Source of the DNA: an uncultured Verrucomicrobiota bacterium
Lineage (GTDB): Bacteria > Verrucomicrobiota > Verrucomicrobiia > Limisphaerales > UBA9464
Direction of reading: 5' to 3'
NCBI GenBank assembly: GCA_903939515.1
Contig: CAJAHH010000012.1
Span: forward strand, 1 to 64,000
Length of the DNA: 64,000 bases
Positions 174-56,029 of the stretch are shown piece by piece. A program made the translations under genes and the position numbers. Each line of letters starts with the position of its first letter. Position 1 is the stretch's first letter. The notes under the pieces were generated by a model. It worked only from the letters and a program-made list of their open reading frames with translations, made no database searches and had not been told where the DNA came from.

Positions 174-240
174 CAGCGACTGTGTGAAAACCTACCAAAC
201 CTGCCGGTTTTAAAATCACAAAGCCCAGAAACTCAACGGA
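174..240 (+). repeat. Dispersed intergenic repeat, copy 1 of 3
   Basis: The stretch has the order CAGCGACTGTGTGAAAAC, a variable spacer with CTGCCGGTTT, then AGCCCAGAAACTCAAC. The same start and end recur at 38651-38694 with a much shorter spacer, and a diverged copy with a GCCAGTTTG spacer lies at 1075-1147. All three copies are intergenic. No function is evident. Confidence 0.6.
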
Positions 241-5460: not shown

Positions 5461-5488
5461 GCACACCGCCCAGCCTACGGGCTCACCC

Positions 5489-5520
5489 TGTAGGCCGGGT
5501 CCCCCGACCCGGCGTTCCCG
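5489..5520. repeat. Hairpin repeat flanking the pseudopilin gene (3' copy)
   Basis: TGTAGG is followed by a perfect 8-bp hairpin, GCCGGGTC (5494-5501), loop CCCC, GACCCGGC (5506-5513), then GTTCCC. A near copy with an imperfect stem (ATGGGTCCCTCGACCCGGC) lies at 6375-6408, just beyond the 5' end of the same gene. The hairpin sits shortly after the pseudopilin stop and could act as a terminator, but the duplicate suggests a repeat element. Confidence 0.6.
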
Positions 5521-6282: not shown

Positions 6283-6374
6283 AGCAATGGAGGGACTCGG
6301 ACCAGAAGAGGCAATCCAAGCCGACCCGTCAATCCCGTGTTCCAGCGTATTCCGTTCGTCAAACGAGCTCACCT

Positions 6375-6408
6375 TGTAGGATGGGTCCCTCGACCCGGCG
6401 TTCCACCG
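6375..6408. repeat. Hairpin repeat flanking the pseudopilin gene (5' copy)
   Basis: TGTAGGATGGGTCCCTCGA, then CCCGGCGTTCC, is a direct repeat of the element at 5489-5520. Together the two copies bracket the pseudopilin gene in the same orientation. Confidence 0.55.
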
Positions 6409-11298: not shown

Positions 11299-11332
11299 GG
11301 AACGATTCAATGGGATCCATCGCGCTGGCTCA
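11299..11332 (-). repeat. Terminal fragment of the 190-bp inverted-end repeat
   Basis: GGAACGATTCAATGGGATCC followed by ATCGCGCTGGCT matches, in reverse orientation, the right end of the complete element at 20172-20361. Only about 34 bases are clearly retained. It lies in the divergent space upstream of the PSCyt1 gene. Confidence 0.6.
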
Positions 11333-11406
11333 GGCTTGTTTTGGAGAGAGACACAGAAATTTCTGCTGGTCTGACTTTTGCAAGGGGTTCCATCGTCTGA
11401 AGAACC

Positions 11407-20043: not shown

Positions 20044-20171
20044 GACCTAGGGGAGGCGGGTTTGGGTGAACCGCCTCTGAAAGTCTTAACCCGGAATGAC
20101 TCTCCTTCAAGTCTCGAGAACGGATCGGATCCAGTCGCAGAACCCCTCCCCATTTTCAGACAAGCTCGTCG

Positions 20172-20361
20172 CCGGAACGATTCAGTTGGGAAGACAGGGA
20201 CGGTGTGGCGAATTCTTTCGCAAGACGAGGCGAGAGTGAGGAGCGGGCCCATTGAAGACCCCTGGGTTGAGGCCCATAGTTGAGGCCTGTAACGAGCGAA
20301 CAACGAAGCTCTTGCGGAAGAAGGCGCAGCCAGCACGACCGATCCAATTGAATCGTTCCGG
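20172..20361 (+). repeat. Complete 190-bp repeat element with inverted ends
   Basis: The ends are CCGGAACGATTCAGTTGG (20172-20189) and CCAATTGAATCGTTCCGG (20344-20361), inverted repeats of each other with one mismatch in 18. The interior includes TTCTTTCGCAAGACGAGGCG and CTCTTGCGGAAGAAGGCGCA, themselves partly complementary (TCTTTCGCAAGA / TCTTGCGGAAGA), so the element can fold into a long hairpin. Related copies lie at 34506-34682, 44864-44933 (internally deleted) and 55866-56029, with fragments at 11299-11332 and 38443-38467. It encodes no transposase. It fits a MITE-like or structured-RNA repeat. Copies lie just outside gene ends; here it starts after one gene's promoter side and ends 8 bases from the next gene's stop. 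Confidence 0.8.
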
Positions 20362-20369
20362 ATTTAAGA

Positions 20370-34505: not shown

Positions 34506-34682
34506 CCGAACTGATTCTGTGGGGCCAAAGGGTGGCGTGGCGGATTCTTTTGCAAGACGAGGCAAGAGTTGAAGAGCGAGCCCTGCTGAGGCTTGTGCTG
34601 GAGGCCCGTAACGGGCAAACAACGACGCTCGAGCGGAAGAAGGTATCAGCCAGCCGGGCCCATCCAATTGAATCCTTGCGGC
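34506..34682 (+). repeat. Diverged copy of the 190-bp inverted-end repeat
   Basis: The left part CCGAACTGATTCTGTGGGGC and the interior TTCTTTTGCAAGACGAGGCA, CGTAACGGGCAAACAACGA and GAGCGGAAGAAGG align in order with the complete element at 20172-20361. The right end CATCCAATTGAATCCTTGCGG keeps the inverted end with two changes. It fills most of the divergent 348-base space between the PAP2 and glycosyltransferase genes, which otherwise shows nothing distinctive. Confidence 0.75.
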
Positions 34683-36288: not shown

Positions 36289-36403
36289 GCAGGACTGAAA
36301 GCCGGCGAGCGAATTCGCAGCTTCAACTCGGAGGAGTGGACGACCGCTAATTTTGATGATCGGACACTTGAAGGAGGAGGCCTTCCCGTTCGATGGTCCC
36401 TGC

Positions 36404-38404
36404 ATGTTCCGCAGACTCGTCCTCGCCAGTGCGCTGCTGCTTGTCCCGGTCGCCTCCAAGGCCGACACCGCCAGCGACGCGGCTCAACGGCTCGAAACCC
36501 TCTCGAAGCTGGTCCAAGACACCCACCCACGGGTCCGTCTGGAGGCCCTTCGGGCTCTAGCCAAGATTCCGGGAGCCCGATCTGCCGAGTTGGCTCTGAG
36601 CGTCCTCGAGCAGCCCATGGATCCCACCCTAGACTACGCCCTCTGGTTGACGATCAACGAACTCTCCGAGCCATGGATCGCTGCCTTGGAATCGGGAGCC
36701 TGGAAATCCGAGGGGCGCGAAAAACAATTGGCCTTCGCCCTGAAGGCTATCCGAGCCGAACAGGCCAGCCGAGTTTTGGGGCGCGTCATCCAAGAGCGCC
36801 GTCTCCCGCGGGATGGCTCCGGCCCCTGGATCGAGCTCATCGGTCAGGCCGGTGGCCCCAAAGAATTGGGAGCGCTGCTGCGGCAGACCGTCTCGGGTGG
36901 TTTCGATGATGCTGCCACGGCTCGCGCCCTGACCTCGCTGGGCGAAGCGGCCAGAACCCGCAAGGTGCGGCCCGAGGGCGATGCCACGGGCATTCTGGGA
37001 TTGCTGGAATCCTCGAACGACTCCGTCCGTGCAGCCACGTTGCGCCTCACCGGCGATTGGAAGACTCCGCCTCCGGCCCAATCCTTGACCCGCCTGGCCA
37101 ATGACCCGTCCGAACAAGTCCGAACCACAGTCTTCGAGGTCCTTCGCCTCCAAGGGGCCGGAAGCCTGCCTCTCCTCAAGCAACTGGCGGAAGACAAAGA
37201 TCCCGCGACCCGACGCCGTGCGGTTTTGACTTGGGCAGCGCTAGACCTCAGTGGGGCCGGGGCCGCGGTGGTCTCCGCCGTCCAGGGGTTGGATCAGGAA
37301 CAAATCGCCCAGGAGTTCTGGCGTTCATTGCTGGCAATCAAGGGTTCTGGAAAACAATTAGCAGCCCTCTTGCCCGCTTCGGGGATTCCCGCCGCGGCAG
37401 CCCGTACCGGCATGCGGGTGGCTCGCGAAGGCGGCCGTAATGACATGGAATTGGTGCTCACGCTCGCCAAGGGGGCCGGCTTGTCCGCCGACACCCAGGC
37501 CTTCACCGACCAACTCATCCGCGAAATGGCCACCCGGGCGGCGGCCAGCGGCAATCCGCAACGCGGTGAGCTCGTCTACCGCCGATCCGACTTGGCCTGC
37601 ATCACCTGCCACGCCATCGGCGGAGCGGGTGGACGGGTCGGTCCGGACATGACCTCCATCGGGGCCAGCGCACAGCCCGATTACCTGGTGGAATCACTGC
37701 TAATGCCCAATGCCAAAATCAAAGAGGGTTATCATGGCGTGGTCGTGGAGACCAAGGATGGCCAGACCCTGTCTGGAACCGTGGTCCGAGAGTCGGCGAG
37801 CGAGCTAGTCCTGCGCGGCACGGCCAACCAGGAAATCGTCCTCGCCAAGTCGAATCTAGAATCTCGCAATCAGGCCTCCGCCTCATTAATGCCGGCCGGC
37901 CTCCTCGACTCGCTCAATGAAGCCGAGCAGCTCGATCTGGTTGCGTTCCTCTCACAACTGGGCAAACCCGGTGAATTCGATGCCAGCAAGGGTGGCGTGG
38001 CCCGCAAATGGCGCTTGGCCAACATCGTCCACACCGACCAGCAAAATGGCCAGTCCGACTGGATGTGGAAAAAACCCCTCGAGGACAAGCGCTGGACCGA
38101 GGTCCTCTCCCGGGTCAATGGAGATCTCACGCGGACCCTCATGGAGGGCGCAACCAAGGCCAATATTTGGTCCTCAAAAATCGCCGTACTGGCGGTGACC
38201 GAGATCCAGTTGGCCCAACCAGGCACTGTCCGCTTCCAACTCACCGCCGCTCAGGGCGCCGAACTGTGGGTGGACGGATCGAAGGTGAATGGCTCAGTAT
38301 CCCTAGCCGCCGGTACACACCGCGTCTTGGTGCGCATCGACCCCAACCACATCCCTGACAAGATTCGTCTGGAAACCAAAGACGCCTCGTTCGTGCTGAA
38401 CTAA
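36404..38404 (+). CDS. HEAT-repeat protein with cytochrome c domain
   Basis: The 666-residue secreted protein has a signal peptide (MFRRLVLASALLLVPVASKA), a long HEAT/ARM-like helical region (about 25-370, repeats such as VRLEALRALAKIPG and PSEQVRTTVFEVLRLQG), and then a single-haem cytochrome c domain (CITCHAIGGAGGRVGPD, with CxxCH near residue 399). A planctomycete-type C-terminal part follows that includes DGQTLSGTVVRESASELVLR, reading like the usual verrucomicrobial haem-binding tail domain, and a beta-rich segment with AEL WVDG-type sequence. Such proteins accompany sugar oxidation or degradation systems. ATG at 36404 was chosen for the signal peptide; the open frame starts at 36353. Confidence 0.85.
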   Translation: MFRRLVLASALLLVPVASKADTASDAAQRLETLSKLVQDTHPRVRLEALRALAKIPGARSAELALSVLEQPMDPTLDYALWLTINELSEPWIAALESGAWKSEGREKQLAFALKAIRAEQASRVLGRVIQERRLPRDGSGPWIELIGQAGGPKELGALLRQTVSGGFDDAATARALTSLGEAARTRKVRPEGDATGILGLLESSNDSVRAATLRLTGDWKTPPPAQSLTRLANDPSEQVRTTVFEVLRLQGAGSLPLLKQLAEDKDPATRRRAVLTWAALDLSGAGAAVVSAVQGLDQEQIAQEFWRSLLAIKGSGKQLAALLPASGIPAAAARTGMRVAREGGRNDMELVLTLAKGAGLSADTQAFTDQLIREMATRAAASGNPQRGELVYRRSDLACITCHAIGGAGGRVGPDMTSIGASAQPDYLVESLLMPNAKIKEGYHGVVVETKDGQTLSGTVVRESASELVLRGTANQEIVLAKSNLESRNQASASLMPAGLLDSLNEAEQLDLVAFLSQLGKPGEFDASKGGVARKWRLANIVHTDQQNGQSDWMWKKPLEDKRWTEVLSRVNGDLTRTLMEGATKANIWSSKIAVLAVTEIQLAQPGTVRFQLTAAQGAELWVDGSKVNGSVSLAAGTHRVLVRIDPNHIPDKIRLETKDASFVLN

Positions 38405-38709
38405 TCCAGAAGGATGCCGTTGGCACGGCGGTGATTGCAGGGCCAATTTCTTTTCCAAGACGAGGCGTTGGCACTCTCCATGGCAGGCAATCACGACGGG
38501 CAGTGCCACAGAGCCGGACCGCCACAGTGCCGGACCGCTCGGAGATCGGTCCCTACCTCGGAAGCCCTCAGGCTGCATCCGGGGGGTGGTACGGCTTCCG
38601 GGGGTTTTAGGAAGGTCCTTGGGCGGCCTCCGGGTGGCCGAAAACAACGGTCAGTGACGGTGTGAAAACTACTGAGCCCAGAAACTCAACAGCCTCCTCT
38701 CTGGCGTCC
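38405..38709. other. Intergenic stretch with repeat fragments only
   Basis: About 305 bases without a gene. Bases 38443-38467 (AATTTCTTTTCCAAGACGAGGCG core) resemble the interior of the 190-bp repeat; a small direct repeat GCCGGACCGC occurs twice near 38510-38540; and the third copy of the short GTGTGAAAAC...CCAGAAACTCAAC motif lies at 38651-38694. Nothing suggests a coding sequence. Confidence 0.6.
38651..38694 (+). repeat. Dispersed intergenic repeat, copy 3 of 3
   Basis: TCAGTGACGGTGTGAAAAC is followed closely by GAGCCCAGAAACTCAACAG. It matches the ends of the copy at 174-240 but with an 8-base spacer, so the middle of that unit appears deleted here. Confidence 0.6.
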
Positions 38710-44863: not shown

Positions 44864-44933
44864 CCGGAACGATTCAGTTGGGAGGAAAGGGATGGCGTGG
44901 CGGAAGAATTCGCAGCCAGCACGACCGATCCAC
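44864..44933 (+). repeat. Internally deleted copy of the 190-bp inverted-end repeat
   Basis: CCGGAACGATTCAGTTGGG (44864-44882) and GGATGGCGTGGCGGA match the left part of the element at 20172-20361, and GCGGAAGAATTCGCAGCCAG, then CACGACCGATCCA, match the right part. About 120 interior bases are missing. The right inverted end is absent and the element runs straight into the xerC 3' end. Confidence 0.75.
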
Positions 44934-55472: not shown

Positions 55473-55862
55473 GTGTCGCGTCTCCACCCCCATCCCCAAC
55501 TTGAGAAACTCCGGGAGGCTTTGCTGGAACTTCATAAGACCCTCGTGGATTCCGAACGGGTCGGCTACGAAGCGGCCCTGGGGCCAATTCCCTCGCCAAA
55601 TCACTTTCTGCGCCTGCTCTCAAGTGACCCTTGGTTTGCTTGGTTGCTGCCGCTCTCTGGCCTGATCGTCACCATCGACGAAGCGTTGGATCGGCGCATA
55701 CCCCTCTCACCCAAAGAAGCTCAAGGCTTGCTCACACAAACCCGCCGACTGCTGGTCGCCTCGGAGGAAGGTCATGGCTTTCCTCGCAGCTACTTCGAGG
55801 CCCTGCAACGCGATCCCGACGTGATCTTCGCCCACTCGAGGGTGGTCCTCCTGCTGCGCTGA
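55473..55862 (+). CDS. Conserved hypothetical protein, about 129 residues
   Basis: The small soluble protein looks natural: HPHPQLEKLREALLELHKTL, GYEAALGPIPSPNHFLRLLS, DPWFAWLLPLSGLIVTIDEA and EGHGFPRSYFEALQRDP. I recognise the general type (short proteins with the DPWFAWL...LSGLIV phrase that recur in Proteobacteria and this phylum) but not a function. It is mostly helical with no membrane segment. The start is GTG at 55473, 260 bases from the divergent RND adaptor. A diverged 190-bp repeat follows immediately after the stop. It may be a stress-type gene, but nothing in the sequence proves it. Confidence 0.7.
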   Translation: MSRLHPHPQLEKLREALLELHKTLVDSERVGYEAALGPIPSPNHFLRLLSSDPWFAWLLPLSGLIVTIDEALDRRIPLSPKEAQGLLTQTRRLLVASEEGHGFPRSYFEALQRDPDVIFAHSRVVLLLR

Positions 55863-55865
55863 GCT

Positions 55866-56029
55866 CAATCGATGGCGTTGGAAGGAACGCGAGGGCGTCA
55901 CGAATTCTTCCGCGAAGCGAAGTGAGAGCCGGGCGCAGGCCCGTGGGCGGTCCGCAACGAGCCAACAACCCAGCTCTTGCGGAAGACGATGCCGGCGGCG
56001 CGGCCGATCCCATTAAAATTGTTCCAGCG
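55866..56029 (+). repeat. Diverged copy of the 190-bp inverted-end repeat
   Basis: GGCGTCACGAATTCTTCCGC, AAGTGAGAGCCGGGC, CCGCAACGAGCCAACAACCC, AGCTCTTGCGGAAGACGATG and the right end CATTAAAATTGTTCCAGC align in order with the element at 20172-20361. The left end is poorly kept. It fills the 256-base space between the conserved hypothetical and the DUF885 gene. Confidence 0.75.

What the first reader, a model, noticed from the sequence alone, without database searches (positions are those of the whole stretch)
20172..20361. Family of about 190-bp intergenic elements with near-perfect inverted ends
Six occurrences lie in this 64-kb window: one complete (20172-20361, 18-bp inverted ends with one mismatch), two diverged (34506-34682, 55866-56029), one internally deleted (44864-44933) and two fragments (11299-11332, 38443-38467). 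The interior can fold on itself (TCTTTCGCAAGA / TCTTGCGGAAGA). No transposase is encoded, so it is a MITE-like element, a REP/BIME-type element or a structured RNA. The copies sit right at gene ends, which may affect transcription termination or mRNA stability. The deleted copy shows that the unit is prone to internal loss.
Basis: seen in the sequence. Interest (0 to 1): 0.62.

Follow-up and report, generated by a model that had tools for sequence, protein, structure and literature searches.

The report
Mobile hairpin DNA with conserved folded core
The 190-base repeat is a small gene-less transposable element that often settles next to stop codons, and at its centre it carries a folded module conserved across a whole bacterial phylum even though the element's ends have changed completely, which suggests the fold itself helps the element survive.

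Summary
The repeat family is real. All six window copies were recovered, about 57 loci occur in the genome, and most congeners tested carry it. It is a MITE. The element is G-CCGGAACGATTC...GAATCGTTCCGG-C and inserts at C|TNA|G with a 3-bp TNA duplication. Orthologous sites are empty in relatives, 0 of 111 copies lie inside predicted genes, and 24 of 59 independent insertions abut a stop codon. No autonomous partner was found.

The surprise is the interior. A covariance model of the central ~88 nt finds the same core in dozens of genera across the phylum (Verrucomicrobiota), inside 160-280-bp elements with quite different terminal repeats and TNA or CTAG duplications. Between genera the stems covary strongly (score 0.57-0.78 against 0.18-0.21 shuffled) around conserved purine loops, G·A pairs and a G·U pair that favour one strand. 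Within the genus, old copies decay with no sign of structural selection (193 G·U-type against 203 A·C-type departures).

Selection therefore seems to act on active master elements, not on each insertion's effect on its neighbours. No Rfam family and no paper found here describes the core. What reads the fold (RNA or single-stranded DNA) is unknown.

The parts
20171..20361 (+). complete MITE copy, 190-bp form with leading G; the trailing C is mutated to A at 20362; no TNA duplication is left at this copy
20172..20189 (+). left terminal inverted repeat CCGGAACGATTCAGTTGG
20344..20361 (-). right terminal inverted repeat, 17/18 to the left one
20210..20324 (+). conserved folded core (model R2, 76.8 bits)
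20213..20226 (+). 5' arm of core stem 1 (TTCTTTCGCAAGAC)
20308..20322 (+). 3' arm of core stem 1 (G, bulged C, TCTTGCGGAAGAA)
34506..34682 (+). diverged copy, flanked by TCA/TCA; core at 34542-34643
55864..56027 (+). diverged copy directly after the stop codon TGA (55860-55862) of the gene 55473-55862; core at 55902-55989
44864..44933 (+). internally deleted copy; junction at GCGGA, 44900-44904; right end lost
11299..11343 (-). right-end fragment
38408..38469 (+). left-half fragment; lies just after the stop codon TAA (38402-38404) of the gene 36353-38404

Best explanation
The repeat is a non-autonomous DNA transposon (MITE), moved in trans by a DDE transposase with IS5-type target choice. It inserts at C|TNA|G and duplicates TNA; relatives in other genera duplicate TNA or CTAG. 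Because stop codons fit the target, many insertions fall on stop codons and leave the gene intact; insertions inside genes are purged. At its centre it carries an ~88-nt module that folds on the plus strand: stem 1, an internal loop with conserved purines and G·A pairs, a middle helix, and an apical stem with a conserved G·U pair at its base. SHOWN: ends, duplications, empty sites, gene-end position, phylum-wide conservation of the core in elements with different ends, covariation between genera, decay of copies within the genus without a structural signal. INFERRED: the transposase type; and that selection on the fold acts on the few active master elements, so that the fold aids the element's own propagation (read as RNA or single-stranded DNA by a host or transposon factor) rather than regulating the neighbouring gene at each site.
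For: Duplication and target: (16 of 19 recent G479 copies with identical TNA on both sides). Empty sites. Gene-end position. Core in other genera. Covariation. Different ends around the same core: 22 of 55 loci against 0-1 in mismatched-flank controls (list). Dead copies show no G·U against A·C asymmetry. No orientation bias outside the genus.
Against: No autonomous element with these ends was found in the own genome, in the genus (four Pfam transposase families) or in G479, so the transposase is inferred from target and duplication only. No transcript or binding partner is known. Alignments A3 and A4 are fitted to the model. The window copy itself has no visible duplication.
Confidence: 0.6

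Rival explanations
1. An ordinary MITE whose palindromic arms evolve in concert through template-switch (quasipalindrome) mutation; the core has no function and its similarity is common descent.
For: The whole element is a long imperfect palindrome, the class of sequence in which one arm can template the other; end repeats also change in step on both sides.
Against: Such mutation should also erase the internal mismatches, yet G·A at columns 33/60 is kept in 20 of 20 founders, G·U at 36/58 in 17 of 20, and the loops are the most conserved letters. It should act on dead copies too, where in core stem 1 compensated double changes are rare (about 7 cells against about 166 wobble or broken). Neutral descent does not explain why the core outlasts the ends.
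Confidence: 0.2
2. Each copy is a cis-acting RNA element at gene 3' ends (terminator, mRNA stabiliser or RNase III site), kept for its effect on the host gene.
For: Copies sit at gene ends and fold stably; some known MITEs act this way in mRNA (reviewed in PMC2229807, PMC3733652).
Against: Copies decay without retained pairing; orientation to genes is unbiased outside the genus and leans antisense inside it (8 sense, 20 antisense); no T-run terminator was noted at the ends; several sites are simply empty in congeners.
Confidence: 0.12
3. A REP/REPIN-type element moved by a RAYT (Y1 tyrosine transposase) that recognises the single-stranded fold.
For: One-strand fold; inverted double cores in ~270-bp forms resemble REP dimers; REPs are known from Verrucomicrobia (PMC3733652).
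Against: No GTAG or CGTC tag; long terminal repeats; a duplicated TNA or CTAG that varies between sites but agrees across one site, which Y1 transposition does not make (general knowledge). Presence of RAYT genes was not tested.
Confidence: 0.04

Closest known systems
Bacterial MITEs (Correia/NEMIS, ERIC, RUP, YPAL, QMITE; reviews PMC10969869, PMC2229807)
   Same: Short, non-coding, inverted ends, target duplication, intergenic, foldable, multi-copy
   Different: Target C|TNA|G at stop codons; one folded core shared by elements with unrelated ends across a phylum; no such feature was found for MITEs in the papers searched
IS5-family insertion sequences (IS1031 and IS427 groups; from general knowledge)
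   Same: 3-bp TNA or CTAG duplications
   Different: No transposase gene in the element and no autonomous IS with these ends found; family assignment not tested against ISfinder
NuwaII PHIS transposons of eukaryotes (PMC4482050)
   Same: Target C|TNA|G with the same 3- or 5-bp ambiguity
   Different: Eukaryotic, with their own transposases; no shared sequence was tested
GTAG/CGTC REP elements and REPINs (PMC3733652, PMC3116915)
   Same: Palindromic extragenic repeats, inverted dimers, present in Verrucomicrobia
   Different: 20-40 bp, tetranucleotide tag, RAYT-linked, no target duplication
CIR repeats of Caulobacter and relatives (described in PMC2229807)
   Same: ~110-bp intergenic repeats with a secondary structure and motif conserved between species
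   Different: Alphaproteobacterial; conserved feature is a GANTC methylation site in a terminal loop

Membership tests
MITE | short, multi-copy, no coding capacity | tested here: met
   about 57 loci; 163-190 bp; no frame open in all 20 founder cores
MITE | terminal inverted repeats | tested here: met
MITE | target-site duplication | tested here: met
   TNA:
MITE | presence/absence polymorphism with empty sites | tested here: met
MITE | autonomous relative with the same ends | tested here: inconclusive
   none found with four Pfam families in the genus or by TIR scans of G000 and G479; drafts may lack it
IS5-family derivative | TNA or CTAG duplication | tested here: met
   that these mark IS5 groups is general knowledge
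IS5-family derivative | IS5-type transposase with matching ends | tested here: not met
   the IS5-like IS in G001:C33 (L171) has other ends, GAGCCCGTCCG, and no core. Hence 'IS5-type target', not filed as a member
REP/BIME/REPIN | GTAG or CGTC tag, 20-40 bp unit | tested here: not met
   ends are GCCGG...; unit is 163-190 bp; definition from PMC3733652
REP/BIME/REPIN | associated RAYT gene | not tested
known Rfam RNA | match to any Rfam 15 model | tested here: not met
   window at gathering cut-offs; 16 founder loci at E<=1 gave only a neighbouring tRNA and one sub-threshold hit outside the core
structured RNA (general) | compensatory changes beyond shuffled and slid controls | tested here: met
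   between genera. Not met among copies within the genus
structured RNA (general) | transcript | not testable with these tools
   needs RNA-seq

The most novel reading that the evidence does not exclude
The core is a selfish folded module, RNA or single-stranded DNA, needed for propagation, that has been carried through the phylum by MITEs whose ends (and so, probably, whose transposases) have been swapped repeatedly.
Probability: 0.35. Interest if true: 0.82.

Novelty: new variant of a known kind. Interest (0 to 1): 0.6.

Why it matters
MITEs are normally defined by their ends, and the interior is treated as filler that is free to drift. Here the interior outlasts the ends across a phylum and keeps a precise one-strand fold with conserved purine loops, while dead copies lose it. 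If this is selection, something reads the fold during the life of the element. The covariance model is also a marker for annotating Verrucomicrobiota genomes.

Tried and rejected
A 5-bp CTNAG duplication was first inferred and then rejected in favour of TNA, because the inner G and C belong to the element. RNA selection on individual genus copies was tested by G·U versus A·C asymmetry and rejected. The antisense orientation bias in the genus (20 to 8) did not hold outside it. IS1380 (PF13701) was tested on the 5-bp idea: no matching ends. PF01609 and PF13340 loci carry neither the ends nor the core, and PF13359 has no match in the genus. TIR scans for an autonomous copy in G000 and G479 found only short elements and half-elements. 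Plasmids, phages and viral contigs: no relatives of the queries tried; four viral pattern hits lack the core. A larger composite repeat in G002 turned out to be a second repeat family beside the element. A conserved peptide was rejected: no frame is open in all founders, indels vary the frame and stems change in compensated pairs. The single genome-contig scan used a flawed pattern (CNAG instead of TNAG) and so returned only 14 stretches, still enough to place the genus.

Full report
OBSERVATION. The complete element at 20172-20361 has 18-bp inverted ends (17/18), and the other five occurrences are genuine: a sequence-only family model recovers all six. The genome (G000, 4.7 Mb draft) holds 44 BLAST places and about 57 loci by model, roughly 45 of them long or near full length. 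Twelve of 18 congeners have matches. Record titles of congeners carrying the same ends, and contig lengths that agree with those of genus members (70,528, 21,425 and 32,511 bases), place the genus in Verrucomicrobiota.

ANATOMY. From fetched loci 111 distinct full copies were collected, mostly 163 or 176 bp; the window copy, at 190 bp, has one more ~13-14-bp central unit. The whole element folds into one long hairpin, better on the plus strand (-81.7 against -69.9 kcal/mol; z -5.7 and -4.0). Shrunken forms of about 30-46 bp keep both ends. The deleted window copy joins two GCGGA repeats (sequence).

TARGET. Flanks read CTNAG on both sides. The middle base agrees across a site in 50 of 81 copies (23 expected; maximum 39 in 10,000 shuffles) and is complementary in only 3, so it is a duplication and not part of the hairpin. 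When the right outer base is not G, the left G persists in most copies (21 of 24); when the left outer base is not C, the right C persists in 13 of 17, the four exceptions being one orthologous group. So the target is C|TNA|G, the duplication is TNA, and the element starts with G and ends with C. The burst in G479 confirms this: 16 of 19 copies have identical TNA on both sides. Tandem copies 4-5 bp apart fit insertion into an existing TNA.

SITES. Several sites occupied in G000 are empty in congeners. At the L009 site the empty target CTGAG contains the TGA stop codon of the upstream reading frame. None of 111 copies lies inside a predicted gene (simple codon-usage gene finder); 24 of 59 independent events lie within 2 bp of a stop codon, against 7 of 34 non-coding CTNAG sites in the window. 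The excess is modest; target choice plus purging is enough to explain it.

COPIES DECAY. At Watson-Crick pairs of the consensus fold, changes giving G·U and changes giving A·C are equally common among the 111 copies (193 and 203), and C>T equals G>A (152, 140). There is no sign that pairing is maintained after insertion. In core stem 1 about 7 cells are double compensated against about 166 wobble or broken (counted by hand).

THE CORE IS PHYLUM-WIDE. The family model found relatives in 35 of 245 genomes of the order, 24 of 115 genera, many matching only the middle. Reading them showed founders with quite different stem letters that still pair, around fixed loops. Over 20 founder cores, stem 1 has 248 Watson-Crick, 11 G·U, 2 A·C and 7 other pairs; G·A at columns 33/60 is invariant; tandem G·A (30/63, 31/62) is replaced by Watson-Crick pairs in part of the set; G·U at 36/58 is kept in 17 of 20. 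A covariance model (R2, 88 nt, 26 pairs) gives 72 matches in 60 loci and hits 31 of 388 genomes of the phylum, 26 of 199 genera, at E<=1e-3 per genome. Covariation is 0.568 (shuffles 0.183±0.009) and, on hits from other orders and classes, 0.780 (0.209±0.015); structures slid by 1-3 columns give 0.07-0.16. Caveats: these alignments are fitted to the model, related rows are not independent, and hits were selected by the model. The founder test started from sequence-only hits and scored G·U and A·C alike. Counted the same way on the larger sets, G·U exceeds A·C 39 to 26 (A3, which includes decayed copies) and 45 to 3 (A4, with selection by the model). The model gave no hits at E<=1 in 83 kb of transposase loci or in 41 kb of viral loci.

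ENDS CHANGE, CORE STAYS. In 22 of 55 loci from other genera a terminal repeat of at least 13/16 with a TNA (19) or CTAG (3) duplication brackets the core; pairing flanks from different loci gives 0 or 1. The ends include GCCGGAACGATTC, GCCGTATCCATGCAG, GGCGGCGTTAATAAAT, GGGTCCGTCAAGAAAT, GAACCTGTTTGGATAA, GGGCCTGTAATTAAAT, TGTGCCGTTCACGAAT (CTAG) and TGTCCCGCGCGGCAAG (CTAG). Elements are mostly about 160-220 bp with one core or about 270 bp with two inverted cores. No Rfam family matches, and the paper searches found no description of it (the library holds open-licence papers only).

INTERPRETATION. Moved as a MITE: well supported. IS5-type transposase: inferred from target and duplication; no autonomous partner was found. 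Selection on the fold in active elements: supported by founder covariation, conserved loops and the contrast with dead copies. Cis regulation of neighbours: not supported by orientation (13 sense, 14 antisense outside the genus). Template switching could align palindrome arms but would also erase the conserved mismatches and should act on dead copies too. I therefore favour a fold that serves the element itself; whether it is read as RNA or single-stranded DNA, and by what, is open.

Noticed in passing
window 20131-20167: A 37-bp sequence ending ...CCATTTTCAGACAAGCTC abuts the left end of the element and recurs at about 95% identity in many congeners; its reverse complement (GAGCTTGTCTGAAAATGG) resembles an end of another transposable element.
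   Followed up: partly
window about 38530-38557; L107, L112, L114, L115, L041, L013: A second repeat, a ~66-bp palindrome GGTAGGGCGATTTCTCCGAAAG...CGCTCGGAGATCGGTCCCTACC with GTAG at its end; half of it is in the window near 38541, and in G002 it lies right beside several copies of the element.
   Followed up: partly
G479 (L287, L347-L366): About 35 near-identical ~221-bp elements, a recent burst; two half-elements (L349, L350) break off at the hairpin tip.
   Followed up: partly
L137:1500-1545, L140:1500-1529, L145:1498-1527: 30-46-bp hairpins made of little more than the two ends of the element; whether they move by themselves is unknown.
   Followed up: partly
L171:1327-2290 (G001:C33): An IS5-like insertion sequence (DUF4096 + DDE_Tnp_1) with perfect ends GAGCCCGTCCGAAAACTC and TNA-like flanks; its ends differ from those of the repeat.
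   Followed up: partly
window 202-237, 1100-1135, 38655-38690: Three copies of a 36-bp repeat, TGCCGGTTTTAAAATCACAAAGCCCAGAAACTCAAC, 75-81% alike.
   Followed up: no
window 5477-5518 and 6363-6404: Two copies (88%) of a hairpin repeat containing TGTAGGCCGGGTCCCCCGACCCGGC.
   Followed up: no
L205, L272, L273 (G105): Core-bearing elements flanked by a possible 6-bp duplication (TTAAAA, CTAAAG) instead of TNA or CTAG.
   Followed up: no
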